Shown: positions 23,921 to 64,000 of the stretch, piece after piece
Numbering within the stretch: position 1 is the stretch's first letter
How the letters are laid out: the number at the start of each line of letters is the position of its first letter
Origin: Diplosphaera chodatii
Taxonomy: Eukaryota; Chlorophyta; Trebouxiophyceae; Prasiolales; Stichococcaceae
Length of the DNA stretch: 64,000 nt
Direction of reading: 5' to 3'
Assembly (NCBI GenBank): GCA_032358165.1
Contig: JAALGY010000014.1
Location: forward strand, 744,001-808,000
Translations under genes and position numbers: made by a program
The notes under the pieces: generated by a model
Seen by the model: only the letters and a program-made list of their open reading frames with translations
Databases searched by the model: none
What the model was told of the DNA's origin: nothing

Positions 23921-24415
23921 TGTACACGAGGCGGTGAAGCACGCTAGCTAGGTTCGCCTTGAGCCTGTGGGCGCTCGTTCGACTGCCTTGGCAGTGGCGC
24001 ACGCAACCAGGAACCCACTAGCCGTCAGGCCTGTACAACTTGGCAGGATCGCAGCTCAACGGCCTGCCCAAGCAGCACACAATGGCATCACTGACCGTGC
24101 TCCAATGCCCGATCTGAATAAGCTGCATGTGACATGGTCGGATTGCCCCGTGCAGTCTCAGTGCATGTGCTTCCTGGACCTATGGAAGTAGGAGGGCTGC
24201 CTGAACATGAGTTGGCAACACAGAGCGTAGTTCTGCAATTGATCGCACTTGGTTGTGAAACGCTGCAAGCCCTAACGACGGACAGCCGCACTGCAGATGG
24301 TGCAGTAGCAATGATGTAGCTGCTAGGAGGCCATGATGGGCAGCGCAAGTACCAGGCATTTGGTTGAGCGGCACACCGCAGGCTGCTGACGGCAGCTGCG
24401 TGAAAGGGAGGCTGC
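23921..24415. promoter_or_regulatory. Divergent spacer, presumed Maf/THO2 bidirectional promoter
   Basis: This 495-bp spacer separates the start codons of the Maf gene (-) and the THO2 gene (+). No TATA element is evident. Regulatory function is inferred from the head-to-head layout. Confidence 0.4.
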
Positions 24416-30400: not shown

Positions 30401-30429
30401 CGGGGTGCCGCTGGGTTTGGTGCAAGCTT

Positions 30430-30471
<42 letters not shown>

Positions 30472-40755: not shown

Positions 40756-43120
40756 ATGGACCGGCTTGGGGACGACCTGCTGTCTGAGATCTTCAAGGAG
40801 GTGCCCTGGTGCGAGAGGTGAGCCCTCGCATGCACACACAGGTGTGTCTCTTGTCACTATTCGCTGCTCTCGAGCATTGCGATGTCTGCCCACACGCAAT
40901 GCAGGGCGCGCTTGGCGGCTGTGTGCCGCCGCTGGCGCGCCGTCTCGGCAGGGCCTCATGCAGCGGTCGTGTGGCACACGCTCCGCGTTCACGGCCCCAT
41001 ACGTGGCGTCTGGCTGACGAGCCACTACGAGAGCCTCGTGACCTGGTGTCGGGCACGCGGCCGCTACATCCGAGAGCTGCAGATTCTGGTTGACACAGAA
41101 AAGGTGCGCTGGCTTGCTGCTTTACTGAACCGCTGATCTGCAATCAGGACGTGCGCTGGGTGTAAAGGTGTTACGTGAATAGGTGACACGATGTGGCTGA
41201 CCTGCGTCATTTCCTGTGCCCTTGCTGCAGTTGGAGACGGCCACAATTAGCAGTTATATGCTGAATCATATGCTGAATAAGCTATGTGCCGCCATGTTCC
41301 CCAACAGCAGCTAGCTGCAGCGGCTCAGCGTGTCAGCATATGACGCCAACAGCATCTATGTTTTGTCGCGCAAGTTCATCAGCAGCATCCCGGTGGCTTC
41401 TGCACTTGAGTACTTGTCCTTAGCGGTTCCCGAGCACCGCATCCTGAGGTCTCTCGCAGACGCAGTGCGCAGCCTGCGGAAGCTGAAGGTACACTCTCAT
41501 GATCCTGTTGCAGTGATCCTATCCATGCATGCTGCGTGTGAATGCTCATGGTTGAGAAGCCTAGATGACCTCCTGTCTCTAAGCCATGCCAAGTAGTGCT
41601 GACTGCCACTCATCTCATTTGATATGTTACACAGGTCGCTGAGCTGGAGTACACAGGAGTTCCTGACCAGTGTGGAAATGTGGCGGTTAAGTGTCGAGGG
41701 CTCGTCAGTGCCCTTTGCAGCTGCCCAATGCTGGAAGAGGTAAAGCTATTTGGCTTCTACCAATGGTGCGCTTCCAATACGACTGCAAGGCATCGTTTCT
41801 GCGAGTTGCTTCCGAGACTTCACAAAGGTTCATCTGAATCGCATGGCATCTAGCCTGTGGACAATTGTGTGCTGATTTTGAGATGGCTGACTCAGATATT
41901 GCCCATGCTGCAGTCCGCCGCTGGATCTGGTTGCCGCCAGCCGACTTTCATCTTTGTTACTGGACGATGCTGCTATTTTTGACATGAGCGCAGCAGCAAG
42001 TGCACTCCCTTGCAGCCTGCAACGGCTGCGGCTGACAGAGGGTTGCAGCACGGCTGCACTGTTGCACCTGCCAAATGATTTTGCCAGTCTGGCCTGCCTG
42101 CGGCACCTGCATCTGACGATCCACGACTGGGCCACAGGATGCCTGCCTACTCGGTGAGCACCCTGGCAAGTCAAACACATCACCGTCATCACATTCCTTG
42201 CAGCTGGCTGACCGTAGCGTTGGTTTTGTGCAAGGGGTGGCGGTGAATGGTGCTGTGCTGCTGACCAGGCTGCAGTCCCTTCGCCTGGAGGCGCCAGCAG
42301 ACGCGGAGAACATGGACATGAGGCACGGCGACCTGATCAGGGGCCTATCGTCTCTTGAATACATCGAGAAACTGCACATCAAGGGCTTCGAACAGCTGGG
42401 CTGGTGGCCAGCAGATGTGGCTGCTGCGCTGCGGCCGCTCAAGCGGCTGCGGGCCCTGGTGGGTTCTGCCCTGAGACCTGCAGGCCTCGTGAAGACTTCC
42501 ACAGCATGCAGCATGCATAGGCACAATCAGCAGAGCTCGTGTGCTGACTGCTTGCAGTCCACCCAGGGGTGCTGCGATCATCAAGCAGGATCAATGTCAC
42601 GAAATGTTGTTTTGATGTGCGACTTGTCTTCATGTGCATTGCAGGGCTTCGACACATGTGGCTTGCGGCAGTTTCCGGCGAAGGACATGCTGTCGCAACT
42701 ATCCGTCCTCAGCCTGCGCGACAACCGCCTGACGATGCTGGCGGATGCACTGCCAGCCGACGCTGTGCACAGGCTGCAGGTGCTGGACTCAGCGGCAACT
42801 TCCTCGGCCAGCTGCCGAGCTACTGGACTGCTGCGAACCTGGCGGCCTTCAGCGGCAACTGGGCCAGCCTGCGGGTGGTTGGCATGCGGCCCAGGGCGCT
42901 GCGCGGAGCTGACACTGCAGCCGAGCAGAAGGCCAGCAAGAGGATGCTGGCGCTATCGGGTGCGCCCTGCGGGGTACAAGCCACAGCCAAGGCGCTGGCG
43001 CTGCTGCTGCGGCGGCAGGCTGCCGTTGCGCAGCCGCCACGGCCGCCGCCGGTCGTTGTGTCTTCCCAGATGCACGAGGAGCTGCTGCAGCCTGCAGATG
43101 AGCTGGCAGCGCTCACATGA
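40756..43120 (+). pseudogene. F-box/LRR array copy 1, disabled by a stop codon and a frameshift
   Basis: All seven exons of the family can be placed: 40756-40817, 40905-41103, 41231-41488, 41635-41765, 41914-42153, 42269-42458 and 42645-43120. Exon 1-2 give a good F-box (LGDDLLSEIFKEVPW, then RARLAAVCRRWRAVS). In exon 3 the codon at 41312-41314 is TAG where the intact paralogues have CAG (glutamine before LQ-R/Q-L). In exon 7 the conserved LDVSGN region has lost one base near 42790, since the exon is 476 bases where a multiple of three is needed, and the rest of the protein continues in another frame to the family stop at 43118-43120. Exon 7 also has an insertion of about ten residues after the RPRAL segment. 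It is probably a pseudogene unless the stop is spliced around. Confidence 0.75.
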
Positions 43121-44135
43121 GCACACTGCAGTCTGGGCGCACACTTCCCGCGACCCCGTCGGCTGCAACAGCAGCAGAAGCTGCAGATGCTGGACCCGCA
43201 GCGCCGCAAGTAGGCGTGGCATGACATTGGCGGTTGAATATGAGGGAGGAGGTGTAGGAGTTGGAGGTATATGTATGCATGTGGCGGTTGCTTGCGATGC
43301 ATATACGCTTGCAGCAGGCCGGATGTGCAGTGGCATACAGTATGAACCAGTCTAAGCAGCACGCTCTTTTGACTGTCAAAGCATACAAGGTGCAGCAATC
43401 CATGCAAATTCAAGGGTCGCCTGCTGTGCTTGAATGGCTTCTTGGCCCCTCGTTGCCCCTCGTTGCCCATGTGCCCAAGAGGGTCGATGTTGATGTTGTC
43501 AAGCATCGCCCAGGGGTGTGGACCATGCACCAAACGGCTGGCCGCACAACACCATCTGCAACACAGTGGCAAGTCTTGTGACGCCCTCAGCCGTGGTGGT
43601 GCTGGTCAGACCTGCGGCATTCTGCACCGACTGGCGACTGGTGTCAGATTCAGTTAGCAGGCCACGCAGCCTATGCTAGGTGCACCTCGGTAAAATGAGC
43701 GGCAGCAGCAGCAGCTACGTAGCGGGTCAGCGGTTTCACCATCACGTCGGCACTATTTGTGCTGTGCGACAGGCAGGGGAGACCCAGTAGGGAAGGTACG
43801 CGCTTCCGACTTGCAGCAGCAGTATGGCATGCAGCCTGCATCCTTGATCGCGATGATGAGGCAGCTCATCATGCACGACATCTGTAGCATCGTATGTGTA
43901 GTTCGCCATCCTGTCTGATTGGCAGCGGATCCTGCGTCACAGCCATACATGTAATAGTCTTTTGGAGCTATTGAAGCATAGCAGTACAGTCAGGCTGCAG
44001 ATTTGGCGGTGAGCTGCTGCATGTGCACAGAAGTTCGGCTTGACGTGTGCATCTGGAACAGCAATGCGACTGTATGCGGTGAATATTTTCACTGATTAGT
44101 AGAAGGCGCTGGTGACTGTGTGCAGGCACTTGCAA
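43121..44135. other. Array spacer 1-2
   Basis: About 1 kb between copies 1 and 2. No gene was recognised. It is presumed to hold the promoter of copy 2. Confidence 0.5.
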
Positions 44136-46609
44136 ATGAACCGCCTTGGGGAAGACATCCTGTCCGAGATCTTCAAGAGGCTGCCCTGGCGCGACAGGTG
44201 ACCGAGGAGGTGCATGTACTGCATGCACGGAAGTCACCCTGATGTACTTGCTCTGTTCTGGTCGTCAGCGGTGGCAACAGAGTTCGACATGCATGCCCGT
44301 ATTCCAGGGCACGGTTGGCAGTGGTGTGCCACCGCTGGGACACAGTGTCCACCGAGACTCATGCTTCTTCTGTGTGGCGATCACTCAGCATCGAAGACAT
44401 CAAGGTTGACAACGGTCTGCTTGATCGCTATGAGACCTTGAAGCTTTGGTGTCGGAAGCATGGCTGCCACATCCGGGAGTTGCAAGTCCATCTCGCAAAA
44501 CGCCATCACCATGTACGCATACTCAGTGACTGTGCCACGTGTTCACTGTAGAACGTACGCTACGCTGGCTGTGAGGGTTCACACTTTTCTTCAACCTGAC
44601 AACCACGAAATTGCACCAACATGCATGCCTCAACCTGATGCAGGCTGAGGAAGCAAGAACATGGCCTACTCCTCGTCGGCTGATGCTCATACTCATCAAC
44701 CTGTTTTACCACAGCCAGCTGCAGCGGCTGACCGTTTTCATGATTGGCAACACAGCCGGGGGCCACAACAACCATCCACCGTGCAAAGTCGTTGACATAA
44801 CATGGGCAGCTTCAGCCCTTGAGCGACTGACTCTGGCCATCGGCAAGGTCTGCAACCTCAGGGGACTGGCTGAGCTCGTCCGTGAGTCCCATGGACTCAA
44901 GGTGCAGTCCCTTATCAGCCACCAGCATCCTTGCATGACCGCAGCATAGGCACGGCCCTCAATTGGCTGGTGTGCATGCAGTGGATCCTAGCTCTGCTGG
45001 CTCAAAGTGTGCAGTCGCAAGAAGCAGACCTGGACTGGCAGGCAGGTTCAGTTCATTTGCCCACACAGGTCGCTCACTTGCAGTATCTGCACCACGGATC
45101 TGAGATGTATGACTTCGAGTTGACGGGGCATCTTGTGAGTGCCCTCTGCGGCTGCCCACTGCTCGAAGAGCTGAAGTTGTCAAGCTTCTACCTAGAGTAC
45201 GCTGCCATATACTGCTATGAACAGCTGATGTCAGCACTGGTGACCTGCGTGCAGGCGGTCTGCATCTGCTGCTGGCAGTTCGACCATACACTGTCTTCCT
45301 GGTGAACCTGTCTGATCAAGGACTGCTGCCGTCGTTCTCGTGCAGGCAGCTGCCTACAGAGCTCTCTGCAGCGACTCGGGTGACATCGCTGATGCTGACG
45401 GGTGTAAACATGTCCCAACTGAGCATCACGGCCAGCGAGCTGCCTCACAATCTGGTACAGCTGCGGTTGGAAGGGAGCAGTCACGGCACCGAAGTGGAGC
45501 TCAGTGACGACATTGCGTCCGAAGACAGTGACTACAACGCTGCAGAGGACAGTGATGACGGTGCAGCGATGGGCAGTGATGACGGTGCAGCGATGGGCGG
45601 TGATGATGGTGCGGCAGGGGACGGCGGTGCTGCTGCTGCCGCCACAACGCCGCGCATGGCAAGAGACTTTGCTGGTCTGGACCGCTTGCAGCACCTGCAC
45701 TGGACGGTCTGCAGCTGGGGTGCGCCGCGCCTGCCAACCGGGTGAGCATGTGCACAGACCATGAGCACGCCTGCATGCCGAGATGATGGCCAGCAGCGCA
45801 CCGCGGTATGTGGCAGGCGCAAATGTGCTGGCACCCCTGCCCAGGCTGAAACTTCTCCGCCTGGAGGCGCTGCCAAAAGCCTACACTGGCATGAAGGGAC
45901 CCGGCGTTCTGGGCATCTCCTCACTGACTGCCCTCGAGCAGCTGCACCTTGGTGGCTTTGAGGAGCTGGGCCAGTGGCCGACTGATGTGGCCATGGCGCT
46001 GCAGCCGCTGCACCGCCTGCGAGCACTGGTGGGTAGTGAAACAAGTTTTGCCACCTGGGATTTGCATGTACAAGTACCTCCATGTAGGCACACTTTCGCA
46101 TGAGGCGCATGAACCCACATACATGAATGTGTTGACGCTGTCAGTAGGGTGACTCGCTCAACCTGATGTCGCAGGCCATCAATGGGTGTGGGTTTCGTCA
46201 GTCACCCACGGCGACCATACTGTCACAGTTGACAGTCTTGAGCCTGCGTGGCAACCGCCTGACCGCTCTGCCCGACAACCTGCCAGCCGATGCTGTGCAG
46301 AACCTGCAAGTGCTGGATGTCAGCTGCAACTTCCTGCGCTGGCTGCCGAGCTCCAGCCGGACGATTGCCAATCTCGCGACATTCAGCAGCAGCTGGGCGA
46401 GTTTGAGGGTGCTGGGCATACAGCCCAGGGAGCTGCTCAGTCCGCCCATAGGCCTGCAATCCACAGCAAAGGCGCTGGCACGGCAGCTGCGGCAGCAGGC
46501 GGCGGCAGCGCAGCCGCCAAAGCCGCCGCCGGTCGTGGTGTACTCAGCGAGAAATGAGCACCTGCTGAGGCCAGCAGCTGAGCTGGCAATGATAGGATAC
46601 AACGTGTAA
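44136..46609 (+). CDS. F-box/LRR protein, array copy 2, with long acidic repeat insertion, 7 exons
   Basis: Exons 44136-44197, 44308-44512, 44644-44901, 45069-45196, 45346-45741, 45845-46028 and 46175-46609 join in phase to 555 aa, the longest copy. The N-terminal F-box is LGEDILSEIFKRLPWRDR followed by ARLAVVCHRWDTVS. Leucine-rich repeats occupy the middle (LEELKLSSFYLE, LEQLHLGGFEELG, LTVLSLRGNRLTALPDNLP). Exon 5 carries an acidic insertion of about 55 residues built on a 24-bp repeat (SDDGAAMG). The protein ends with the family tail AQPPKPPPVVVYS...NEHLLRPAAELA. F-box/LRR proteins are substrate receptors of SCF ubiquitin ligases, binding Skp1 through the F-box (family knowledge), and the target is unknown. 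No disabling change was seen. Confidence 0.85.
45549..45620 (+). repeat. Coding tandem repeat, three 24-bp units
   Basis: The units at 45549-45572, 45573-45596 and 45597-45620 each encode eight residues. The first two differ by one base and the third is more diverged. They sit inside exon 5 of array copy 2 and extend an Asp/Ser/Gly/Ala-rich loop without breaking the frame. Confidence 0.9.
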
Positions 46610-47566
46610 AAATCTGTCTGCTGAGACACTTTAGATGGATTGGCACTGCAGCAGAGTCTGTCGTGATACGCAGCAAGCGCTGGGATGCGTCAGAATGTGA
46701 CTGTCGCTGTAGTAACGTGAGGTACTGGCATGGGTTACATACAGCGGTAGGGATCTTGCTTCACCCACATACATCGAGGTGCTTTCTCTAAAGCTGTCAT
46801 GCCTGCTGACATGCTTTGCAATGCAACCTCGTGACACGTCATGTAGCCGGTGTATCATCTGACAGATGCCTCAAGAAGAATTGGGAAGCAAGGCAGGCCT
46901 CTGTACACCGAATCGGCGGAATATTAAGCGGCATCAATGTCCACAGCAGGGAGCTGCTCAATAGGAAGCGTCACCCAGCACATAGGAGAGCCATGGGTTA
47001 AAGAGGGGGGCGAGGTATGACTTGCTGTCGCTTGCAATCTGGATGTGTTGTGGCAGTATGTACGTAGTGCCGTCGTTGCTTACGCTGTGCCATCTGCAGC
47101 ACACCGACAGCGTTCATTCCGCTTGCCAGGGCATGGTGCTTGAAGCTTCCGGAAGACTTAGCAGGCCAACGCCTATGACTTCAGTTGCGAACCCGAAGGT
47201 TGATGATGGAGGACGAAAGCAGCGATTCACTACTGAATCACACCTCGTGGTGTCTAACTGGGCCGGCATGCCGTGATCCTGCTGATGAACTGCATGTGCA
47301 GTCTGCATTGTACGTGCGTGCGCCCATGATCAAGCAAGTGTGCTGACGACACTGCAGCGGGTCCTGCAGAGCAAGGCAGCGTTTCCAGGCCTTACGACCT
47401 TGCGGTGCTGCAACATGCCTTCGTTGCTGAGCGTGAAGAGTAGTGCACTCTGACCTTGCGCTGCACGGTGGGTGTGTCTATTTGCTGCATTGCGCGCCTG
47501 CCCACAACTGAAGACATTTCATCCTGACATGCATACAGATACGACTGTTCCTGTATGCAGCCGCAG
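46610..47566. other. Array spacer 2-3, shares blocks with spacer 3-4
   Basis: The segment from about 46648 to 46742 (GCACTGCAGCAGAGTCTG...) recurs near 50083-50165. The block at 46926-46966, ending GAGCTGCTCAATAGGAA, recurs at 50454-50492. The duplicated unit therefore includes both flanks of copy 3. Confidence 0.7.
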
Positions 47567-50034
47567 ATGGACTGCCTTGGGGACGATCTGCTGTCGAGGA
47601 TATTCAGGGCGCTGCCCTGGCGTGACAGGTGCGTCGTGCGCAGCCACTGCACGACGAGGCACGCACGCCTTGGACACACAACTGCTGTAGCTGAAGAGGT
47701 CTTGGCGATCGATGGTGCCATTCTGCATGCGGTGCAGGGCACGAGTGGCTTCTGTGTGCCGCCTCTGGCGTGCCATATCGACAGGCACCCATGCAGCGCT
47801 GGTGTGGCAAAAACTCACAACTGATGACTCCAGGCTCGGCCGTGACCTGCTGACCCACTGCTATGGCAGTTTGCTGCGCTGGTGTGCAGCCCGCGGCAGG
47901 CGCATCAGGGACCTCCACATTCAGTTTCCAAAGGGCTACTGCAATGTACGCACTGTGGCAGCGTCTGAATTGCTGACCTTTCCCTGCATATGTACGCCTT
48001 GGGCATAAGGGACCATGTTCATTGAACCCGGTGGTGATGACAATGAGGCCATCTGCTGCGTGCACCACTTCCATGCAGGCCAGCCATGCACACACCCCGA
48101 GCGGCCGCCAGCTGACAGAAGTGTGTGTCATGCTGCTGGCCACCAGCCGCCAGCTGCAACAGCTGACTATGACCCGAGATGACAGCAGATGTGCAGACTG
48201 CTACTATCTGCCGCAAGGTGTCGTGGGCATGATATCGACAGCTTCATCCCTCGTGCGCCTGACCCTGGCTCTCCCTGATCAGTCGGCTGTCAGCGTGATG
48301 GCAGGATCCCTCTGCAGCCTGCATCAGCTGAAGGTGGCGTTGCCAAAGCAACTGTACATGTCGGCAGTGTCAGAGTTGCCTTGCATTGGCGTGTGTCAAG
48401 TCTAGATAGTCGTAGCCATTCCTGCTGCGCTGTGGCAATGCTTGAGGCAGAAACTGCCGTGTTAACAAGCCTGTCCGCTTGATCACTGGCACACAGGTGG
48501 CTCATCTGTGGTATTCCGGAGGTATTGTGTTTGCAGAGCCTCACAATGAACCAGCAGAGTCGCTTGTCAGGGCACTTTTCTGCTGCCCGCAGCTGGAAGA
48601 GCTACAGCTGTCAAGATTCTACATACGGTGCGCTGTCAACCAGCGAGCGGCAACCTGCTCAATATGCAGCAGGAATGTAATGCACCTGGTAACTGACTCA
48701 TTGCATGCATCGTGCAAGCTGCTGACTTGTGAGACTGTGGCCCTCAAGCCAACCATTGGGAGGCTGCAATGCTTGCGTGGTGCAGGCAGTTGCCGGCAGG
48801 ATCGCCTGCAACACGAGTGACCTCGTTGTGGCTGAGGGATACACACATATGTCAGCTCAGGGTGACAAACAGTGTGTCACTTGGCAGTCTGCAGCAACTG
48901 CGGCTGACAGATTGTGAATACTGCAATGCCTCAATTGGCGCTGATGACAATACAACAGAGGACAGTGATGACAGCGCAGCAGAGCACAGCGATGACGCCT
49001 CGGTGGTGGACAGCGATGATGGTACAGCGGAGTACAACGCTGAAATGATGCGGGTGCCGCGCAACTTTGCCAGCCTGGGCTGTTTGCAGCACTTGCAGCT
49101 GACAGTGCATTACTGTGGTGGACTTTGCCTGCCGACCGGGTCAGTTACTTTGGTGCATCGAGCACGACTCAACTGTGCTGCTGTGATTGCACTGCAAACA
49201 AGCCACCACAGTATGCACACCGAAATTGATACTGTGCTGTGCAACTGTTCAGGCTGAAAACCCTCCGCTTGGAGGCGGCAAGAACATACTATGTGAACAT
49301 GTGTGATCCTGGCGTATGCTCAAGGGCATCTCGTCTCTGGCGGCTCTCGAGCAGTTGCACCTGGCTGGCATGAAGGATCTGGGCCAATGGCCGGCAGATG
49401 TGGCTGCCGCTCTGCAACCTCTCCACCGACTTCAAGCACTGGTGGGCACATGCGAGAGGGCTGCCAGCGTTAGGATGGAATGGGGAGCATATCCATATCC
49501 AGCACACATTACGAGCTGCTTGAGCCACCAGTCATCAAAGTGAGTGGCACACTTTTGGCCACCTCACCCCACTCTTCTGTTGGTGACTCGCTTACACTCA
49601 TGTTGCAGGGCTTGATGGGGTGTGGCTTACAACAGTCGCCCGCATTGGCGGTCCTCTCACAGTTGACACTCCTCAACCTGAGCCACAACAGAATGACCAC
49701 GCTGTCAGATGTGCTGCCAACGGAGCTTGTGCAGAATTTCCGAGTGCTGGAGGTCAGCAGCAACCTTCTGCGCTGGCTGCCAAACTCAAGCACAGCTGCT
49801 GCAAGCCTTGCGGCATTCAGCGGCAACTGGGCGAGCCTGCGGGTGCTGGGCATACGGCCCAAAGACCCTCGCAGTCCGCCAATAGGGCTGCAGTCTGCAG
49901 CCAAGGTGCTGGCACGGCAGCTACAGCGGCAGGCGTCAGGGGCGCAGCCGCCACGGCCGCCGCCGGCTGTGGTGTTCTCAGGGTGGAATGAGCACCTGCT
50001 GCGGCCAGCGGCTGAGCTGGCAATGATAGCATGA
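47567..50034 (+). pseudogene. F-box/LRR array copy 3, single frameshift in exon 6
   Basis: Exons 47567-47628, 47738-47945, 48079-48333, 48497-48627, 48786-49139, 49253-49441 and 49609-50034 follow the family pattern. The F-box is LGDDLLSRIFRALPWRDR followed by ARVASVCRLWRAIS. Exon 5 has an acidic insertion (TEDSDDSAAEHSDDASVVDSDD region). Exon 6 is 189 bases instead of 190. A base is missing near 49316, where copy 6 reads CGCGTACTGCTT and this copy GGCGTATGCT. After it the frame for KGISSLAALEQLHLAGMKDL is shifted. Everything else, including exon 7 and the tail AQPPRPPPAVVFS...NEHLLRPAAELA, is open. It is a recent pseudogene, or an assembly error if the base is really present. Confidence 0.7.
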
Positions 50035-51054: not shown

Positions 51055-53387
51055 ATGGACTGCCTTGGGGACGATCTGCTTTCGAGGATATTCAAGGGGC
51101 TGCCCTGGCGTGACAGGTGTGTTGTGCACAGCTACTGCACGACGAGGCATGCCCTGGCCATACAGCTGCTGTAGCTGATGAAGTTCAAACCGTATTCTTG
51201 CCTGTCTGCATGCGATGCAGAGCGCGGCTGGCTTCTGTATGCCGTCTCTGGCGTGCTATATCGACAGGCACCCATGCAGCAGTCGTATGGCGGAGGCTCT
51301 GCATTGCTGATGACGCTGCACCCCGCCGTACCTACCTGACCAGCTCTGATGGCAGCTTGGCACGCTGGTGCCTGGCGCGCCGCTGCCACATCCAAGAGCT
51401 GCATCTGCAGTTTGACGAGGGCTACCTGGATGTGAGACGACTCCTTCCTGCCTATTGAGCTTTACACTGTATTTATGGACTGCATGTGAAGGTTGCGCTT
51501 CGCTTGCCAGGTGACTTGCTTTGAGCCTAACCTGCTTCAGAGAGTTCCTCTTGCAGGATGTGCCCATGCGACTGCTCCTAGCACGCGGGGTTGATGACAT
51601 TAGCAATGAGCTGGAAGTGTGCGCTACACTGCTGGCTGGCGGGCAGCTGCAGCGGCTGAACATGTCATCCCGTGACGACAGTGGCGCTGATGCCCTGCCA
51701 TGCGAGCTTGTTGGGAGCGTTTCAATGGCTTCAGCACTCCAGCACCTCACTTTGACCATCAATGACCTTGACAGCCTGCGGGCATTGGAGGATGCTGTCC
51801 GACACCTGCCAAGGCTGAAGGTGCTCCTCTCCGGCAGCATGACCAGATGCAAAGCATGTCAAGTGATGAAGTTGTTGCCACGCCAAGCGCAGCTTTGATG
51901 ACTGCTCGGCTTGTGTCTCTGGGAGGGACAATGTGCATGCAAGCAAAGCGCTGGTGCGCAGCGTGCTGACTCTGTTGACTCGCAACACGGCCACTTGAAT
52001 TTTTGTGTCGTCGAACGCAGGTTGTTGATTTGACATACGCAAGTGACTCTGTGGGCTTTGACAGCCTGGCCGCGAGATTGCTTGTCAGCACCCTTTGCGG
52101 CTGTCCATTGCTGCAAGAGCTCAAGCTCTCGCACTTCTGCTTGATGTGCGCTTTCATGTTTTCTCAGCAAGCCCAGCTATGTTGTAGCCGCGGCTACATG
52201 CCATGTTGGTTGTTACCTGACATGCATCCTCTCTGCGTCCTGTCCTCAGGTCACAGCTCACAGCTGACAGAGTGTACGCCTTTCTGCAGGGAGCTGCCTG
52301 CAGAACTCTGCGAGGCTACTCGGCTGACATCGCTGGTGTTGAGAGATGCGGAAGTCCATGAACTGAGGGCAGCAGCGGATGTGCTGCCTTGCAGGCTGCA
52401 ACGCCTCCGGCTGACAGACGCCACTTGCAGTATGGCACATGCACTGGGGCGTCTGCCCAGGGACTTGGCAGACTTTCGACGCCTGCGCCATGTGCAACTG
52501 ACGGTCCAACAGTGGGATATGTCATGTCTGCCAATTGGGTGAGCATGCACATCTAGTGAGGCCTAATTTCATAAGTTATTGAGCAGCGGCTGACTATGAT
52601 CACTAGTCATAGCTGGCTAGAAGCTGAATCACGTGTTTACCCTGTGTCCAGGCTGCAATCCCTTCGCCTGGAGGCGCCAAGAGACCATGCTTCTGTGGGC
52701 TGGACAGGGTTCAAGGGGCTCTCTCTGCTGTCATCTTTGCAACGACTGTGTTTCTGGGGATTCTACAACTGGTATGCACCGGATGTAGCTGCTGCTCTGC
52801 GCCCCTTGCACCGTCTACGGGCACTGGTGGGTGGCTCATGGGCCAGCATACCATTGGGTAGCTCTGTCATTCATTCGACTACCAACAAGACGTTTCACGT
52901 GGTCAGCACAGCATCACAAGCAGCGCAGCAGCAAATCAAAATGCAATTTGCAGATGGCTGCGCTAACTCACCCGCACTTGCGTCGCAGGGTTTCGATACA
53001 TGTGGCTTGCGTAGCTTTCCGGCACTGGACATCCTGTCTCAGCTGACACTCCTGAGCCTGCGCGACAACGAGCTGAGTCGGCTGGCAGACGCGCTGCCAC
53101 CTGACGCTGTGCAACACCTGAGAGTCCTTGATGTCAGCGGCAACCCGCTGGGCCTAAACATTGCAGCACTCAGCGGCAACTGGGCAAGCCTGCGGGTGGT
53201 CGGCATCAGGCCCAGGGCCTGTCACGACCCATTGTTTGAGCTGGCAGGCACAGCAGAGGTGTTGGCGCTGCTGCTGCGCCGGCAGGCTGCAGTCGCGCAG
53301 CCGCCGCGGCCGCCGCCATTTGTGGTGTACTCTGGCCTTCATGAGGAGCTGCTGTGGGAGGCTGATGAGCTGGCGGTTGTTACATGA
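51055..53387 (+). CDS. F-box/LRR protein, array copy 4, intact, 7 exons
   Basis: Exons 51055-51116, 51221-51431, 51557-51820, 52021-52145, 52290-52538, 52652-52826 and 52989-53387 join to 494 aa. Intron phases are 2,0,0,2,2,0 counted from the left, as in every copy. Exon 1 plus the start of exon 2 make the F-box (LGDDLLSRIFKGLPWRDR, ARLASVCRLWRAIS). Exon 3 to 7 give LRR segments such as LQHLTLTINDLDSLRAL, LLQELKLSHFCL, LTLLSLRDNELSRLADALP and LRVLDVSGNPL. The tail reads AQPPRPPPFVVYS...HEELLWEADELAVVT. There is no acidic insertion in exon 5, so this and copies 1 and 5 represent the short form. Its exon-1 intron is strikingly similar to that of copy 3, showing recent duplication. Confidence 0.85.
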
Positions 53388-54604: not shown

Positions 54605-56896
54605 ATGCAGGTGAACAGCCTTGGTGATGATCTGCTGGCAGAGGTTTTCAAGACTCTGCCTTGGCGTGAGAGGTGAGGCCCCTGCATGCAGAGCAAGGCA
54701 CTTTCTATGATCCTATCAAAATGCGCTGTCCATGCACATGTACAGCGACAGCCCTCTGCATGACAAATGCAATGCAGAGCGCGCTTGGCGTCTGTGTGCC
54801 GGCGCTGGCATGCCGTCTCGACATGCAGCCATGCAGCTGAGGTGTGGAGAAACCTCTCGGTTCTGGAGGCCACGCCTGCCTTTGGTCGGCCTCGGCAAGC
54901 CTACGGCAGTCTGGTTCACTGGTGCCAGAAGCACGCCACCCATATTCGGGAGCTGCAGCTTCATTTTGCCAACACAGTGCGCAGGCCCGCCATCTGTCTG
55001 TGATGTGCCGCTCTGTTCAATCCTGCGTTAGATGTCAGAGCTTGCCACATTCGGCTGTAGTTGGAAGTCATGTCGCCCACCTGCATTACTTGTTCAATAT
55101 TACAGGTAAACCCTGAGGGTACTGGGCGCCACGTGCTGATGGAGTTGTGCGCCATACTGATGGCTGGCAGTGGCCAGCTGCAGCAGCTCAGTGTGTCCAC
55201 ACATGACAGTGACGGCCTCTTTCTGCTTCCAGAAAGGATAGTGCTCATGTTCTCAATGGTCACGACGGTAGAGTGCCTGCAACTGACCATCCCTAAGCAT
55301 CACCAACTGAAGGCGGTGGCATTCTCGATCCGGAGCTTGCGCAGATTGAAGGTACGCTGTGCGACATGCAGCAAGATACTGACTGTCCAACACTGACGGA
55401 TAGTCCAGCAGCATCATTGCAAGCGCAAAAGGTGGTTCTTCCGCTTGATACCGCTGATGTCAAGCGCGCTTGTGTGCTCATGTCCCACTGACAGGTTGCA
55501 CAGCTGTCTTATAGCGGGATTCCGCAGCCACTCGACACTGTGACGACCCATTCCGTCATCAGCGCGCTCTCCGACTGCCCGCTGCTGCAGGACCTGAAGC
55601 TGCTGGGTCTCTGTCTTGGGTGTGCATGATGCACTGTGCAGACATTTGTGAACTGTCGTTCATGTGTGCATTCTGCTTGGCTGAAGGCGGAGGACCTACG
55701 CTGAGCAATACTTCATATTGCTGTAGAGACTTGGGTGATGCCAATGCTGCAGGGAGCTGCCAGACCTGTCTCAAGCTACGAAGCTGACATCCATCGTGCT
55801 GAGAGGGGCACAGATTGTAGGCATGAGCGCAGCAGAGAGTGCATTGCCTCCTTACCTGCGACGGCTGCGGCTGACAGAGAAGGGGTTTCGCAACACGGGT
55901 GCACTGTCACAGCTGCCCAGAAGCTGCTGTCTGGCTGGCCTGTCTGGTTTGCAGCAGCTGCATTTGACGGCTCACAGCTGGGGACTACAATGTCTGCCCA
56001 CAGGGTAGGTACCTCACGATATCTGCAGCAGCATGTTGGGGGCCTCCGCATGTGCAACCTTCTGACCACTCATGTCTTACAAGCGAGACTGAAGCTACCT
56101 TTTCGGGCTCCAGGCTGCTGTCCCTTCGACTCGAGGCGCCAGAAGGTCGTGAATGGACTTGTGAAGATGGTGACTCGGCTGTGGATCAGTCTCCAATACG
56201 GGGCATCTCCCGCCTGGTGCATCTGGAGAAGCTGCATCTTGAGGGCTTTGACAACCTGGACTGGCGACCAGCAGACGTGGCCGCGGCACTGCGACCTTTG
56301 CACCGTCTGCAAGCACTGGTGGGTGGGGACTGAGCCTGAGCCTGCATGGCCGGACAGCCTGCTATGAAGCGTACATATTATGCATAGGCAGGGGTACCAC
56401 ACTCTGGATTGGTTCCGGATAGCACATATTGCAGGGTCGCCCTGCCAAAGGTGATACTCTCACCCTCATGTTGCAGGGGTTCCGAGAGTGTGGTTTGCAG
56501 GGAATTAGTCTGATTGATAACCTGACGCGCCTTACAACCCTGAGCCTGCGTGGAAACCGCCTGAGCCAGTTGCACGATGTACTTCCGCCTGATGCTGTGG
56601 GCAACCTGCGGCTGCTGGATGTCAGCGGCAACTTCTTATTGGGTCGGCACCCGGACTGCCACATGACTGCAGACAACATCGTGGCTTTCAGCGGCAACTT
56701 CGCGAATGTGAGAGTGCTGGGGATGCGCCCCGGCATCGTGCCAATCGACGCGGCAGCCGCAGCGAGGGCGGTAGCGCTGCTGCTGCAGCGGCAGGCCGCT
56801 GCTGCGACGCCACCAAGGGCGCCGCCAACCGTGGTGTTCTCCGGCATGCATGAGGAGCTGCTGCGGCCTGTGGACGACCTGGCAGTGGTCGCCTGA
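54605..56896 (+). CDS. F-box/LRR protein, array copy 5, intact, 7 exons
   Basis: Exons 54605-54672, 54778-54976, 55106-55351, 55495-55619, 55753-56004, 56114-56318 and 56477-56896 join to 504 aa. An in-frame ATG two codons earlier (54599) would give 506. It starts MQVNSLGDD, so the first ATG of copies 2-4 is replaced by valine and the preceding MQ is used. The F-box is LGDDLLAEVFKTLPWRER plus ARLASVCRRWHAVS. The LRR part includes LLQDLKLLGLCL, LEKLHLEGFDNLDWRP, LTTLSLRGNRLSQLHDVLP and LRLLDVSGNFLL. Exon 6 has a small acidic insert (EWTCEDGDSAVDQ). The tail is more diverged than in other copies (ATPPRAPPTVVFS...HEELLRPVDDLAVVA), making this the most distant member. Confidence 0.83.
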
Positions 56897-59800
56897 CCGT
56901 CATGGCTTTGCCAAGTATTGCGATGTACTGATGCACTTGACATGCGTACTGCAGCATCAGGTCTGGTCGGCTGGCACCTTAGGTGCTTGCATGACCACAC
57001 CCAGTAGCAACGTGTGCCTGACAGCAGATGCAGTTGGTGAGTAGGATGCACATGGGTTTAGCACTGCCCCATGCACACCGACATTGTGAGACAGAACTGA
57101 TGTTTCATCGTCTGTACTTCACGGTACACAGGCAGCGCTGCCCTTCGTGCTTACCCAAACTGTACAGCATCGCAAGAGCAACTCAATCGAATAAGTGCGC
57201 TGCAGGCTGGTTTGTGTGTCCATGGCACTGTCAGATCACCGCTAGTTTGCTGCCGGTGGTTGCCTTCTCAGAACCCAGTCACGCAGGTCTTACATACGTA
57301 TGCCAGGACAGGACCACCACGGCCGCTGCGCATCCTGCGGCCAGGAAGGTTTGACCGTCCTGTTCCTGCTGTTGCTGCTGCTGCTGCTGCGGCCATGCAG
57401 CCGCTGTGCTTTGACCCTGCTGCGTCAGGCTTTGACCTCGGCTGCAGATGCAACTGCTGGACGACGGGATGCCCAGCCCTGCAGGCTGGTGGCACTCTGG
57501 CTGCACCTGCTGCAGCATCGGCCGCTGCTGCGCATGCTGCGGATTCAAAGCTCCATCTCCCAGCTTCAACTGCTTTCGTCAGTCCCCCCAGCGCGAAGAA
57601 CCAAGGCCTGAGGTGCATACCATGCAGTCCTTTGTACTGATGCCAACCAGGCCAGGCTAGCTTCGCGCATCAGATGCTGCAGGGCATTTGTGCATGGATG
57701 CCAGTCAGGTGCCAACATGGGAGCTGTGACCACACAACTGTTAGGCCATGACCGGCGGGCGCTCGATGAAAGAGTCAAGAGGACCTCACCCTCTGCTCAC
57801 CACAGTCGCTGTCCGCGTTCTGCACCTATTGTGCGCTGCTATGCTATTCCTCTGCAGCACTGCATTTACATCACTGCACCAGTAGATCGGCACCGTGAAG
57901 AGGCCATACCTGCGGTCCACAGTGACAAGCATTCTCTGATTGTCTGTGGGGTACGTGGTTTCAGATCATGTGAGTGGCCGCTTGTGTCACTGTGCTGTTA
58001 GTCGAGCATTGACCCTGCCACATGCGTGGACACCATACATGGCACAGCGCCATGCAACTACATGGCTTCATAGACCCCCCAACCATCTGCACACGACAAC
58101 ATCGTGATGCTGTCGCCGCTCCTTATGCCTCACTAGGTCGGAGCACACTGCACACGCGGCCGTCGCCACACCGTGCAGCGGTGCTTTGTCAGCAGCAGGC
58201 AGCGCTGCCTTCCTCCTGTACCCTGCAGATTCAAGATATTTGAGTGTGCCGCCGCTGGGCTGCACACAGATCTGTGCTGTATGTGGCGCAGAGCCAGCAG
58301 CCGGCGCTGGCAAACTTGCACGCACCTGTGGACAGGCAGTGGCCAGCCAAATGGTTTAGTCCCTACCCGGGGTGCTCGAGGCCATCACCCTGTGCCGTGC
58401 CGCACCGCTGGCGTTGTATGATTCCCACGCCTAACCCAGATGCTCGAGTCCTGCAGGATGTTGCGGAACGTCCTTCCCGTCTCCTACGGCATGGCTCAAA
58501 CACAGGGTCAGTTGGACTTGCTGACAACAGCACAACATATGGACAGGACTTCCACGTATGACACCTCAGGCCACATCAGTAGCAGGTAGTGTGCCCTTGC
58601 ATGCCATGGTGTATATCAGATGCATGGCTGCTGATCACTGCAGACCCTATGGTGCACACGTGCGCACCGCCAGCCTAAAACGGATGGAAGGGTCGCCGCC
58701 CGCCGTTTGCGCCTTCCTGAGCAGGTTGAGCCTGCAGCACGCACACGGTGCATTCAGGGACAGGGCATGAAACCCATTCTCAGCCACCACCAAGCAACGA
58801 ACATGGTTTGAACGAACATGCGTCATGCATGCCGCTCGCTACCTTACTTGAGCAATCCCAGTTGTGGGTGGCCGAGCAGTGCTTCTGCCTGGGCGCGCCT
58901 GTTACCGGCGCCATCGATTGTGCCTGTCAGCTAATACACATGCGTACCTGTGGTGTGTGCGTTTTTGAGCTACAGCGTTTCAGTTGATTGCAACAGAACA
59001 TCACCCTTCTGGGGGGCAGTTCACGATGTGCATGTCATTTTTGTTGAATCATTTGCGTGACAGCATCCCAGCATCCCAGTGTATGCAGAGGTCGTGTACT
59101 CTCACAGAACCATCGGGCACTCTAGCGTCCCTGGGCGAGGACCACTTTGATGGTAGACTTGTGTTGTACACGCAAGGGGCTATTCATGTGAAGCGTGCAT
59201 GCATCAGGTGGTTATCTGGCATGCTGCCTCTGCCTGGTGCAAAAGAGGGTCGATGTTGTATAAGTCATCAACTGCCGCCCTGGGCGGGGTGCGAACCATG
59301 CCATCTTTGCCCGCAAGACTTGCAGACAGAAATTGCCGCAGAAGGAGGCCTGCTAGGCATATGTCCAGTTGACAAACTCTCTCGGTGTTGTTGGCGGAAT
59401 ATTATGCGGTGTCAGCAGCATGTGAGCAGCAATCACAACGTGTGCTGACCGGGACCTACCATGCATGAACTGCAGGCCGTCCAGCACATGCGACGACAAG
59501 GCACGCTTGTAAGGTGAGCATTAGAAACCGCGGTCCTTCGAGCCGGTGAACTGCAATCTGCTGTCGCTGCCATCTGTGCGTGGCGGACATCGTGCAGCTC
59601 GCCGACTAACCACTGGGTCTGGCCAGCAGAATTATGAGGACTGCATGATGAGCCAGCATGCAGAACGCTCAGCGAGCTAGTGTGATGTGAGAGGACTGTA
59701 CCTGCATGTGCCTGGGCGCTTGGTTGCCCTGCAATGGCATAGCTGAAGCAGATGGAGGTCCGGTGTATCTGCAGGCCGCAAGCGCGGGCCAGTGTGGCAG

Positions 59801-60196
59801 CCCAAGAACCAGAGGTGTACTGGAAGGGCGACGATGAGTGGTACCCTGGAGTCGCTGCCCAGTACAGTGAGGACAACGTGTGAGACTCTGGTCGCCATCC
59901 ATCCAGTGAGTGCAATCAGTCTCAGCGGTAACGCTGCCATGACTCATGATGTGATGCCCTGATGAACTATGTAGTCTGCTGTCTGTGTTGCACACGGTCA
60001 AGTAGCATGCCTACAAACTGTAGCAGGCAGTCTGAACACTACTGGATACGCTGGTGGTCATGCTGTCTGGTTGCAGCAGTTTGTGCTACCAGCGCTGCGC
60101 GCGCTGCTATTCATGTAGCTTATCCTGCATTTGGAGCATGCATTTCCATGCTCGACATCAGTGACGCTACTGAGGCTGGCATGCCTTCACATGCAG
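56897..60196. other. Long array spacer 5-6, no gene recognised
   Basis: This 3.3-kb interval is almost exactly one repeat unit longer than the other spacers allow, yet I could not find an F-box or LRR exon in it on either strand. A CTG-rich tract lies at 57367-57390. The block GGCGGAATATTATGCGGTGTCAG at 59393, shared with other array promoters, lies about 800 bp before copy 6. Many short frames are present without splice partners. Confidence 0.5.
57367..57390 (+). repeat. Short CTG-rich triplet tract
   Basis: Seven CTG triplets, interrupted once by TTG, lie in the long spacer between copies 5 and 6. On the minus strand it reads as a short glutamine run in an unsupported frame. Confidence 0.7.
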
Positions 60197-62628
60197 ATGG
60201 ACCGCCTTGGCGACGACTCACTGGCGGAGATCTTCCGCGCTCTGCCCTGGCGCGACAGGTGGGCAGCCGCATACATACCTGCACTGGTGGCAGCACGATG
60301 TGTTCCTACGATTGTCGGAAGTGGACCACGTTCAGCATCCAGTGAAGGTCTGTATGTACATTGCAGGGCGCGCCTCGCGGCTGTGTGCCGCCGCTGGCGC
60401 ACAGTCTCGACGGGCACTCATGCAGCGCTGGTGTGGCAAGGACTCAGAGTCAATGACGCCAGGGTTGGCTGTGACCTGCTGATGACCAGGTGCTATCGCA
60501 GTTTGCTTCGCTGGTGCCGAGCCCACGGCAGCCATATCAGGGATCTGCACGTTCAGCTTCCAAGATATGAGGTGGGGACTAACTACATATCTGTTGTGCC
60601 CTGAGCCCTCAATTTGTATCAATTCGCACTAAACAGGGAGGCGTGCTGACCGTGGTTTGTATTCGATGGCTTTGATCCCACCTTTAAGCACCACTTCCAT
60701 GCAGGATGAGCATCTAGACAACAGCCCAAATGGCCAGCGACTGAGAAAAGTCTGTGCCACACTGCTTTCCACCAGCAGCCGGCTGCAGCGCTTTTTCGTG
60801 CTGAGAGAGCCTGAAGGTGGATTTGGGGAGCCTGACTATCGGCTGCCGCGCAAATACATACGCATGGTCATGACGATTCCACGGCTCGAGCGCCTGATCC
60901 TGTCGCTCCCTGATCGCGCACTTGTGAAACTGGTAGAAAAGTCCCTCAGCGGCCTGCATCACCTCAAGGTAAGGTTGGTACAACCACCGAAATATGTATG
61001 TTTGCAGTCGATGGTTGCGTTGTACCGGCAGATGCCAGTGCCACTGTCCCTTATCATGTCTGCCACCCCTACAGTGTGGCATCCCGTAGGAACGTGCAAA
61101 CAAGCCTGATTGTTTTCGTTGCGCACACACAGGTGGCTCATCTACAGTACTCGGGACATCTTGTGTTTGCAGAACCTCACAATGAGGCAGCAGAGTCGCT
61201 TGTTAGGGCCCTTTACTGCTGCCCACGGCTGGAAGAGCTCAGACTGTCAGGGTTCTACATGCGGTGCGGTTTCAGTAATTTGCGGCACTGTCCTTCTGCA
61301 TATGGTGACTGATATGTGACCGCATGAATGTTGCAAGCCGCTGCCAGCAGATGAGAACTGTGCTACCTGAGCAAACCAAGATGGCAGAGTGGGAATCATG
61401 ATGTAGGCAACTGCCGGCAGCACCGCTAGAAGCAGCACAGATGACTTCGTTGCTGCTGTGGGATACAACAGACCTCCTCAAGCTGAACGTTACAGCCAGC
61501 ACACTTCCCCGCAGTTTGCAGCTACTGCGGCTGACAGACGACAGTCAACAGCACTGTGCGGCCAGTAGTGATGATGTTGCAGCAGAGGACAGTGGAAACG
61601 AGTCGGTGGTGGACAGTGTGGGTACAGCGGAGGACTACACAGCTGCATTGAAGCCCGCATCACGCAACTTTGCCAGGTTGCACTGTCTGCAGCACTTACA
61701 GCTGACGGTGCACAATTGCCGTGGCCTTTGCCTGCCGACACAGTGAGCATCTCTGATGCATCAGGCACGAGTTGTATCCCATCGTGATTTTGGATGCCAT
61801 CAGGTCACGGCAGCAAGCACATCGGTTGAATATTGTGTTCTACCATTTTCAGGTTGAAAACCCTCCGCTTGGATGCAGCAAGGACAAACTATGCCGCCAT
61901 GTCTGACCCTCGCGTACTGCTTAACGGCATCTCTTCTCTGGTCATGCTTGAGCAGCTGCATCTTCTTGGCATCAAGGAGCTGGGCCGGCGGCCAGCGGAT
62001 GTGGCTGCTGCTCTGCAACCCCTCTACTGTCTTCAAGCACTGGTAGGCGACTGATGAAGGTTGGCTAGCATCACCCGCGAGCAAATCACAGCAGCAGCCT
62101 TGCTTACCAGTGGCTTGACGGATCCAGCACTATTCTTTGCCGCCATACCCACGCTTTTGTGATGCCCGCAACCTGGTGTTGCAGGGCTTGGAGGCGTGCG
62201 ACTTTCAGCAGTCACCTGCGACGGCAATCCTGTCACAACTGACGCTCCTCAACCTGAGCCACAACCGCATGACGACACTATCGAATGTGCTGCCAGCGGA
62301 GTCTGTGCGAAGCTTGAGGCTGCTGGAGATCAGCGGCAACCTTTTGCGCTGGCTGCCGAACTCACGCACACATGCAGCAACCCTTGCGGCGTTCAGTAGC
62401 AACTGGGCGAGCCTGCGGGTGCTGGGCATACAGCCCAGGGACCCGCGCAGCCCGCCAACTGGGCTGCAAGCCACAGCAAAGGTGCTGGCCCGGCAGCTGC
62501 GGGAGCAGGCGTCAGGTGCGCAGCCGCCACGGCCGCCGCCAGTTGTGGTGTACTCTGACACAGATGAGCACCTGCTGCAGCCCTCAGATGAACTGGCAGA
62601 TACTTGCAGTCTGGTGGAACCAGGCTGA
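60197..62628 (+). CDS. F-box/LRR protein, array copy 6, with acidic insertion, 7 exons
   Basis: Exons 60197-60258, 60367-60571, 60705-60968, 61133-61263, 61407-61742, 61853-62042 and 62185-62628 join in phase to 543 aa. Two in-frame codons upstream another ATG (60191) is available. The F-box is LGDDSLAEIFRALPWRDR with ARLAAVCRRWRTVS. The LRR segments are closest to copy 3 (HLVFAEPHNEAAESLVRAL, LLNLSHNRMTTLSNVLP). Exon 5 carries an acidic insert (SSDDVAAEDSGNESVVDS region) homologous in position to those of copies 2 and 3. The tail AQPPRPPPVVVYS...DEHLLQPSDELA is extended by about nine residues, because the usual stop is lost and the frame ends at CSLVEPG. No disabling change is seen. Confidence 0.83.
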
Positions 62629-63429
62629 TCCGTGCGCTGGAGACCTGGACCATATTGCTGCAGCAGCTGCGGGACATCGTAGGTTCGTAGCAGAAGGTTT
62701 GCTGTAGTATCATGGCAGCAGAGATACAGGGTGGGGCAGATGGGACGCACCGGCTGACCGCAATATCACAGGACAATCAGCTTGCGATATGCATATATAT
62801 CAGCTTGGCTGAGCAGTGTGTTGTGCCAGCGGAAAGCCATCACAACACCATTTATCACAGCTGTAAGTGCGCTTGGAATGGTTTGCTTAGCATGCACATG
62901 CTGCTTCCACCTGCTGCTGTGCTGGGCAGGGTCGATATATTGTCGAGCACGAGGCCATGCACAATTCGTGTCGGCCAGCAACGACAGTGATTTGCAAGCA
63001 CCTCATTTCGCAACGGTCTGCCTCATACGTTTGCTTTGTCGTCCCCGGCTTCTTTCAGCCGTCTGTGGCAGCATCATGCAGGCAAGTGAGCAGGCCCCTC
63101 GTGACTCCTTGTGACCCGCAGCGCATCGTGTGACATCATGTGGTGACATACGGAGGTTGACACGCTCTCTGCATTGTACAACTAATCGGTACCGGTGCAC
63201 CGCTGGCATTGATGGCATGATCGGCAGCTGAGGGCACGGCAGCACTTCCGATGCTGCACATGCTGACGATGGCGCGGCAGTCGTGCACTCACGTATGCTG
63301 CTGTATATGCTATCATCGCTGCCTCGGTGATGAACAGCTTCAGACATGCTCTGCATTCCCGCTTGCTCGGTAAGTCCGTGCCAAACCACAGGTGCGTGCC
63401 AGTCCTGCCATCACAGCCTGACACATGCA
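62629..63429. other. Array spacer 6-7
   Basis: About 800 bp, with a TATA-like GCATATATATCAG near 62790. No gene was recognised. Confidence 0.5.
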
Positions 63430-64000
63430 ATGCAGATCAATTGTCTTGGGGACGACCTGCTTTCAGAGATCTTCAAGGGGCTGCCTTGGCGTGACAGGTG
63501 AGCAATTTCACGCACGAACGGTTCCTCTACAGTTTCGTACGCTGCGTCTGACCGCATGTTCGGCAAGCGTCGATGTGCATGCCATGCAGGGCACGCCTGA
63601 TGGCCGTGTGCCGCCGCTGGCGCACAGTTTCGTATGACACCCATGCAGCGGCAGTGTGGCAGAGACTCAGCATCGATGAGACCGCAGTCGAGGACATACC
63701 GGAAAGCTTCTACGGAAGCTTGGTACGCTGGTGTGCAGCACGCGGACGGCACATCCAGGACCTGCAAGTGCTGGTTGCTTTTGCGCCGTCCTCCGAAAGC
63801 GGTCCACAGGTGCGCAAACGCAATGCGATACAGAGTCTCTGAGCTTCACAGACATACCAAGCTGGGTGACATGGCTCAGGCTTGCTGTCCGTATTTGACG
63901 AACCTTGCACCGCCTCACGTGTGCCTCTCCTCTGTATGTCCAGGAGGTGGACATGATCGACAACCGTCTGCTCATCGAACTGTGCACCATACTCTTTGCC
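63430..64000 (+). CDS. F-box/LRR protein, array copy 7, 5' part only (cut by window end)
   Basis: Exons 63430-63497 and 63590-63809 are complete, and exon 3 begins at 63944 and runs off the window. It starts MQINCLGDD. The second ATG used in copies 1-4 is ATC here, so translation must begin at the upstream ATG, as in copy 5. The F-box is LGDDLLSEIFKGLPWRDR with ARLMAVCRRWRTVS, followed by the family segment SFYGSLVRWCAARGRHIQDLQV. Exon 3 begins EVDMIDNRLLIELCTILF, matching the position of the first LRR exon in other copies. Integrity of the rest cannot be judged. Confidence 0.8.

What the first reader, a model, noticed from the sequence alone, without database searches (positions are those of the whole stretch)
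40756..64000. Head-to-tail array of at least seven F-box/LRR paralogues in an algal genome
Seven genes with the same seven-exon structure, intron phases and domain order follow each other on one strand. Start-to-start distances are about 3.4, 3.4, 3.5, 3.55, 5.6 and 3.2 kb. The F-box (LGDDLLSEIFK-LPWRDR / ARLA-VCRRWR-VS) is strongly kept while the leucine-rich part varies. Large, fast-evolving F-box/LRR clusters are known in land plants and nematodes, and an array like this in a green alga points to diversifying SCF substrate receptors. The pathway they serve is unknown. The array continues past the window.
Basis: partly seen in the sequence, partly recalled or inferred. Interest (0 to 1): 0.8.

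Follow-up and report, generated by a model that had tools for sequence, protein, structure and literature searches.

The report
Tandem F-box/LRR gene array, green alga
Seven related genes stand head to tail in an algal genome and probably make adaptor proteins that choose which other proteins the cell destroys; such arrays are a known kind of gene cluster, though this one lies in a stretch of DNA for which no counterpart was found on the matching, diverged chromosome copy.

Summary
Seven head-to-tail copies on the + strand (starts 40756, 44136, 47567, 51055, 54611, 60197, 63436) share seven exons and phases, and all seven pass Pfam's F-box-like cut-off. Gene 7 ends 1.84 kb past the window; no eighth copy was found on the contig. 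g1 and g3 carry frame lesions. At least 14 family genes lie in five places of the genome. It behaves as an ordinary birth-and-death F-box/LRR family: dN/dS below 1 in 15 of 15 pairs tried, a more constrained F-box, and a conversion-like g3/g4 tract over exon 1 and intron 1. Positive selection in the LRR part is suggestive, not robust. Relatives of the last exon occur on other public contigs, several apparently as arrays. Tandem F-box growth is already described for Chlamydomonas (PMC3030570). The unexpected part: some contigs exist as two diverged colinear copies, and the array lies in a segment of about 73 kb without a detected colinear partner, while DNA from 7.4 kb right of the array matches C32. 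Most likely: SCF substrate receptors, substrates unknown.

The parts
40756..43120 (+). Gene g1, 7 exons (40756-40817, 40905-41103, 41231-41488, 41635-41765, 41914-42153, 42269-42458, 42645-43120); stop in exon 3 and 1-nt deletion in exon 7: likely pseudogene in this strain, or sequence error
   Evidence: F-box-like 27.0 bits vs cut-off 24.3, exons 1-2 given; public relative with open frame P0003, 98% over the 48 residues before the lesion
44136..46609 (+). Gene g2, 7 exons, open, 555 aa
   Evidence: F-box-like 25.2, LRR_4 31.7, R13L1 29.7, LRR_8 27.4 bits, all over cut-off
47567..50034 (+). Gene g3, 7 exons; 1-nt deletion in exon 6 shifts the frame: likely pseudogene in this strain, or sequence error
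   Evidence: F-box-like 25.1 bits, exons 1-5 given
51055..53387 (+). Gene g4, 7 exons, open, 494 aa
   Evidence: F-box-like 27.8, R13L1 LRR 31.6, LRR_4 27.7 bits
54611..56896 (+). Gene g5, 7 exons, open, 502 aa from a GTG; in-frame ATG a few codons upstream
   Evidence: F-box-like 24.7 bits; LRR models below cut-off
60197..62628 (+). Gene g6, 7 exons, open, 543 aa
   Evidence: F-box-like 27.5 bits; LRR models below cut-off
63436..64000 (+). Gene g7, exon 1, exon 2 and the first bases of exon 3 in the window; the rest runs to C12:809842 (1842 bases past the window end); open
   Evidence: F-box-like 30.7, LRR_8 27.1 bits
47567..47796 (+). Gene-conversion-like tract in g3 shared with g4: exon 1, intron 1 and start of exon 2
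   Evidence: best segment score 61.6, 0 of 1000 shuffles, next best pair 30.7; nearest neighbour switches from g4 to g6 along g3
57000..60100 (.). Wider spacer between g5 and g6: no family exon detected; short matches to C12:812009 and C12:816149

Best explanation
A tandem array of seven F-box/LRR genes made by repeated duplication of a ~3.4 kb unit and kept going by birth, death and gene conversion. Each intact protein probably docks by its N-terminal F-box on Skp1 in an SCF ubiquitin ligase, and its leucine-rich part picks a substrate for ubiquitylation. Shown: seven copies, exon structure, F-box and LRR matches, purifying selection on average, two broken copies, a conversion-like tract, relatives elsewhere. 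Inferred: unequal exchange as the source of copies, Skp1 docking, substrate choice, and that copies differ in substrate.
For: F-box-like over cut-off in 7 of 7 array genes and 11 of 12 family genes tested; the F-box matches F-boxes of FBXL3, FBXO31 and Skp2 chains in the PDB weakly (E 0.002-0.1); LRR models pass in g2, g4, g7. Same seven exons and phases in all 14 family genes modelled (the later models were steered by the first six). dN/dS 0.12-0.46 in the F-box and 0.33-0.52 elsewhere, F-box lower in 14 of 15 pairs; M0 omega 0.42 for 10 genes. g3/g4 tract. Skp1 gene at C45:772124 (E 2.8e-29). 34 database relatives of exon 7, of which 4, 2, 2 and 2 share a longest-contig length.
Against: No expression or binding data. 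All 14 genes have LG or IG where 6 of the 8 best F-box loci of the same genome show LP in a regex scan (2 of 8 gave no match); whether that weakens Skp1 binding is unknown. 4 of 14 family genes carry frame lesions. LRR models stay below cut-off in g5 and g6. The exon-7 fold was of low confidence (pLDDT 41), so the solenoid is not shown by structure. The whole-protein profile search found no relative at E 1e-5 among 7996 scored candidates, probably because databases hold exons apart. The cullin search did not complete.
Confidence: 0.78

Rival explanations
1. Neutral genomic drift: the copies are mostly surplus, and number and sequence wander without adaptive meaning.
For: Two of seven copies broken here, four of 14 in the family; copy number differs between the colinear C29 and C30 loci (3 vs 2); 'genomic drift' is the reading in the title of PMC3030570 (passages read).
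Against: dN/dS of 0.31-0.51 over the full length in 15 pairs is below 1, so selection keeps most copies; a near copy of g1 with an open frame exists in a public contig (P0003).
Confidence: 0.35
2. Adaptive diversification of the LRR part, for example against changing partners, pathogens or self/non-self signals.
For: Exons 3-6 vary more than the F-box; with 504 codons M2a beats M1a (2dlnL 17.8) and M8 beats M8a (30.3); on the strict 310 codons M8 vs M8a stays at 8.35 and only 1 of 60 null simulations reached the M1a/M2a value.
Against: On the strict columns M2a vs M1a falls to 3.9 (chi-square P 0.14) with no site above 0.82; the loose set has one site at 0.92. Conversion among copies, dS near 1 and fixed branch lengths can mislead such tests.
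Confidence: 0.2
3. Self/non-self or mating recognition locus, like the S-locus F-box arrays of flowering plants.
For: The array lies in a segment without detected colinear partner on the matching contig.
Against: None of the 6 RNase T2 matches is on C12; the only RWP-RK match on C12 is about 194 kb from the array, at 1004276, and C32 has RWP-RK matches too. S-locus genes are not F-box/LRR (recalled).
Confidence: 0.04
4. Assembly artefact.
For: None found, beyond the fact that the assembly holds diverged copies of some contigs.
Against: g1-g6 are 58-74% alike in exons; near or exact matches in other records: P0003 98% to g1 over 48 aa, P0006 100% to C30_2 over 145 aa (whether those records are of other origin than this genome is not known).
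Confidence: 0.01

Closest known systems
Tandemly grown F-box genes of Chlamydomonas reinhardtii (PMC3030570, passages read)
   Same: Green alga; 88 F-box loci, most from tandem and none from segmental duplication, 84% in that paper's STS class
   Different: No array like this one is named in the passages read; orthology of single genes not tested here
F-box/LRR (FBXL) SCF receptors such as Skp2 and FBXL3
   Same: N-terminal F-box followed by leucine-rich repeats; FBXL3 is the best F-box match in the PDB (E 0.002)
   Different: The family profile matches designed LRR, Toll-like receptor and SHOC-2 chains best, and no FBXL is among the 60 of 194 matches shown; LG instead of LP in the F-box; conserved proline-rich C-terminal tail
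Fast-evolving F-box clusters of land plants (FBA/FBK, PMC3719486, passages read)
   Same: Tandem copies, drift in number
   Different: Other substrate modules; far larger numbers in angiosperms
Allodiploid Auxenochlorella UTEX 250-A (PMC12636532, start of abstract and passages read)
   Same: Green alga with two diverged chromosome sets from a hybrid
   Different: 22 Mb haploid there, 85.6 Mb in all here; whether this genome is a hybrid, a polyploid or a mixture is not settled

Membership tests
F-box protein (Pfam PF12937/PF00646) | Profile score over the curated cut-off | tested here: met
   PF12937 over 24.3 bits in 7 of 7 array genes and 11 of 12 family genes tested; C29_2 22.3; C29_s and C30_2 not tested
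F-box/LRR (FBXL) | Leucine-rich repeats C-terminal to the F-box | tested here: met
   LRR_4, LRR_8 or R13L1 over cut-off in g2, g4, g7; below in g5 and g6; g1 and g3 given only in part. A loose LxxLxL regex counts 9-21 per gene in 14, without a chance control
SCF substrate receptor | Binds Skp1/Cul1 and delivers a substrate | not testable with these tools
   Skp1 gene present; cullin search not answered
SCF substrate receptor | Leu-Pro at the start of the F-box (frequent, recalled as a Skp1 contact; not a defining feature) | tested here: not met
   LG or IG in 14 of 14 genes; LP in 6 of the 8 best F-box loci of this genome, 2 of 8 unmatched
Plant LRR-FBD F-box family | FBD domain | tested here: not met
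   No FBD among Pfam matches up to E 1 in 4 full proteins or up to E 0.1 in g7
S-locus F-box cluster | Linked RNase T2 | tested here: not met
   6 RNase T2 matches in the genome at E 0.001, none on C12

The most novel reading that the evidence does not exclude
The seven-gene array is a chromosome-copy-specific recognition locus of a hybrid or otherwise two-set alga: a segment of about 73 kb that one parent brought and the other lacked, whose F-boxes are partly homogenised by conversion while the LRR parts diverge, giving a battery of degradation receptors that separates strains (immunity, symbiont or mating recognition).
Probability: 0.05. Interest if true: 0.75.

Novelty: new member of a known kind. 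Interest (0 to 1): 0.33.

Why it matters
It gives a small and well-bounded F-box/LRR family (14 genes found, one structure) in a green alga, with diverged chromosome copies to compare and relatives on other public contigs, so birth, death, conversion and selection can be followed gene by gene. By itself it confirms what is known of F-box families.

Tried and rejected
Whole-protein profile search (A1, 10 of 14 genes) gave no relatives at E 1e-5 among 7996 scored candidates; exon 7 alone worked (7993 candidates scored, so a lower bound). One scan each of viral and prokaryote contigs for exon 7 gave none. AlphaFold of exon 7 from five window copies: mean pLDDT 41, not used further. Pfam on 10 of 33 long frames (at least 170 aa) of the left part of the window gave only a Maf match below cut-off, so the left neighbours remain unannotated. 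S-locus and mating-locus ideas: RNase T2 and RWP-RK searches do not support them. Upstream-intron idea (CAG before ATG): dropped, since in-frame ATGs lie just upstream in g5 and g7. Literature: five listings; none of the titles and abstract starts seen described this family; passages of four papers were read (PMC3030570, PMC3719486, PMC7829749, PMC12636532), no paper whole. Weak C1:1939929-1941413 matches of the whole-protein search (E 1.6e-4 to 4.7e-4, LRR part only) were not counted as family. Rows dropped: frame-shifted exons (g1 e7, g3 e6, C29_s e3 and e7, C30_2 e3) were left out of the codon alignment; g1 exon 7 entered the exon-7 tree only up to its lesion, and P0035 (E 7e-4) was left out; site models used 10 of 14 genes with branch lengths fixed up to one scale; 15 of 91 gene pairs were chosen for dN/dS. 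The control of the partner search (10 kb of C29) found its C30 partner over 5.6 kb only; the other 4.4 kb matched other contigs, so partnerless stretches also occur elsewhere. Some C29/C30 models have unsure exon ends (C29_1 exon 6, C29_s exon 3). One script printed nothing and was redone.
Full report
WHAT IS THERE. The window is C12:744001-808000 of an 85.6 Mb, 55-contig genome. Repeat search found two families with seven copies in register. Aligning six copies and placing splice sites gave seven exons per gene with entry phases 0,2,0,0,2,2,0. Gene 7, cut by the window end, was completed from neighbouring DNA and ends at C12:809842. No eighth copy was found: the whole-genome protein search (78 of 118 candidates scored) lists C12 matches only from 784864 to 809839, and exon-by-exon tblastn of C12:734001-838000 found only these seven plus one weak lone exon-4 match on the other strand at 814053.

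STATE OF THE COPIES. g2, g4, g5, g6 and g7 read open. g1 has an in-frame stop in exon 3 and a 1-nt deletion in exon 7; g3 has a 1-nt deletion in exon 6. In the rest of the family C29_s and C30_2 also carry frame lesions: 4 of 14. Whether they are real or sequencing errors cannot be told here; for g1 a near copy with an open frame exists in a public contig (P0003, 98% over the 48 residues before the lesion; the rest resembles g1's shifted frame by eye).

DOMAINS. Pfam F-box-like passes its cut-off of 24.3 bits in all seven array genes: 25.2, 27.8, 24.7, 27.5 for g2, g4, g5, g6 and 27.0, 25.1, 30.7 for g1, g3, g7 (for g1 only exons 1-2, for g3 only exons 1-5 were given). LRR models pass in g2, g4 and g7, not in g5 and g6. 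The profile of ten family proteins matches LRR chains in the PDB (194 sequences at E 0.01, best 60 shown: designed LRR, Toll-like receptor, SHOC-2 and others), mostly over its second half; the F-box alone matches FBXL3, FBXO31 and Skp2 weakly. An oddity is Gly in place of the usual Pro at the F-box start, in 14 of 14 genes.

THE FAMILY IN THE GENOME. Fourteen genes with one structure were found: C12 seven, C29 one plus three, C30 one plus two; as only the best candidates were scored this is a lower bound. C29 and C30 are colinear there at 68-80% nucleotide identity in the seven aligned pieces longer than 2 kb, about 34 kb together, so C29_s/C30_s and C29_1/C30_1 are counterpart pairs (100/100 support each; C29_2/C30_2 90/91). 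Copy number differs between the two loci (3 vs 2). In the tree the seven C12 genes do not form one clade, though a single origin is not ruled out by supported branches; g2, g3 and g6 are a clade (99/98).

A SEGMENT WITHOUT DETECTED PARTNER. C12 from 817261 rightwards, that is from 7.4 kb right of the array's end, matches C32 (inverted) at 75-81% in its five larger blocks. Left of that point no colinear partner was found: window 1-12000, 12001-30000, 30001-40700, the spacer 57000-60100 and the first 9 kb of the right flank gave only short scattered matches apart from the array's own paralogues; the array genes themselves were searched as protein and no member was listed on C32. A control stretch of 10 kb of C29 found its C30 partner at 79% over 5.6 kb, but its other 4.4 kb matched other contigs instead, so partnerless stretches are not unique to C12. 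The span C12:744001-817261 is 73 kb. Loss on C32, insertion on C12, fast divergence, rearrangement (two short C32 matches lie far off at 84-85 kb), limits of the search tool and a gap in the assembly all remain possible; C32 itself could not be read.

EVOLUTION. Pairwise dN/dS is below 1 in 15 of 15 pairs, 0.12-0.46 in the F-box and 0.33-0.52 in the rest; the F-box is lower in 14 of 15. Mean pairwise identity among array genes is 65% for the F-box, 33-49% for the rest of exon 2 and exons 3-6, 53% and 58% for the two parts of exon 7. Codon site models, whose M0 likelihood agrees with IQ-TREE (-13929.83 vs -13929.82), favour a class above 1 on the loose alignment (M2a/M1a 17.8, M8/M8a 30.3). On the strict one M2a/M1a is 3.9: chi-square P 0.14, while only 1 of 60 null simulations reached it, and M8/M8a is 8.35. 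The tests disagree; I read this as suggestive only. g3 is a mosaic: its 5' end, intron 1 included, is closest to g4 (82% vs 61% for the next), nearly all of the rest to g6. In the segment test g3/g4 scores 61.6 against 30.7 for the next pair; with 0-2 of 1000 shuffles, g1/g5, g2/g3, g2/g6 and g3/g6 also stand out, and since the shuffle ignores uneven constraint those weaker ones prove little.

RELATIVES. The exon-7 profile found 35 database proteins at E 0.001, 34 of them clear relatives; sources are ena, jgi and lgn, organisms not given. Four share a longest-contig length of 41,227, two 92,747, two 18,720 and two 12,425; equal length is taken to mean the same contig, which I could not check. 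The four of 41,227 fall into separate supported clades with partners from other contigs; of the two of 92,747 one sits by g4 (92/87) and one in the clade of g7 (99/98); the pairs of 18,720 and 12,425 each lie in one clade. If those contigs are from different algae, several paralogues are older than their split, and arrays are common in the group. P0006 is identical to C30_2 exon 7 and may come from the same species.

COMPARISON. PMC3030570 (passages) reports 88 F-box loci in Chlamydomonas, most from tandem duplication and none from segmental; PMC12636532 (start of abstract and passages) counts 15, 43 and 38 F-box proteins in Auxenochlorella UTEX 250-A, Chlorella vulgaris and Chlamydomonas; PMC7829749 (passages) notes a low number of duplicated members in green algae. 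This genome shows 67 F-box-like matches (150 of 256 candidates scored), none of them on C12, C29 or C30, since the F-box of this family is split by an intron. Hence a new member of a known kind.

MECHANISM. Most likely an SCF receptor family with different substrates per copy; the F-box-first order, Skp1 in the genome and constraint fit, but nothing here shows binding or substrate.

Noticed in passing
C29:150-170 kb and 560-590 kb vs C30:135-155 kb and 538-568 kb; C12:817-828 kb vs C32:344-353 kb; F-box match positions on C26 and C27: At least some contigs exist as two colinear copies, C29/C30 at 68-80% and C12/C32 at 75-81% nucleotide identity in the larger blocks; for C26/C27 this rests on match positions only. 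A hybrid or polyploid alga, or two related species in one assembly.
   Followed up: partly
window 1-40700 (C12:744001-784700): No colinear partner found in the rest of the genome by DNA search, and no Pfam match over cut-off in the 10 of 33 long frames tried; content unknown.
   Followed up: partly
family exon 7, e.g. window 52989-53387: A proline-rich C-terminal tail (QAAAAQPPRPPPxVVYS..EELLRPADELA) is kept nearly as well as the F-box (58% vs 65% mean identity), also in the database relatives; its role is unknown.
   Followed up: partly
window 45490-45640, 48940-49030, 61560-61640: g2, g3 and g6 carry an acidic SDD/EDSDD-rich insert of varying length in exon 5, absent from g1, g4 and g5.
   Followed up: no
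C12:810724-810771 (L039:2724-2771): Short interspersed repeat (about 46 bases, mostly over 85% alike) on many contigs.
   Followed up: no
C26:2433969, C27:1816526, C17:455265, C3:32080: Further Skp1-like matches besides the canonical one on C45.
   Followed up: no
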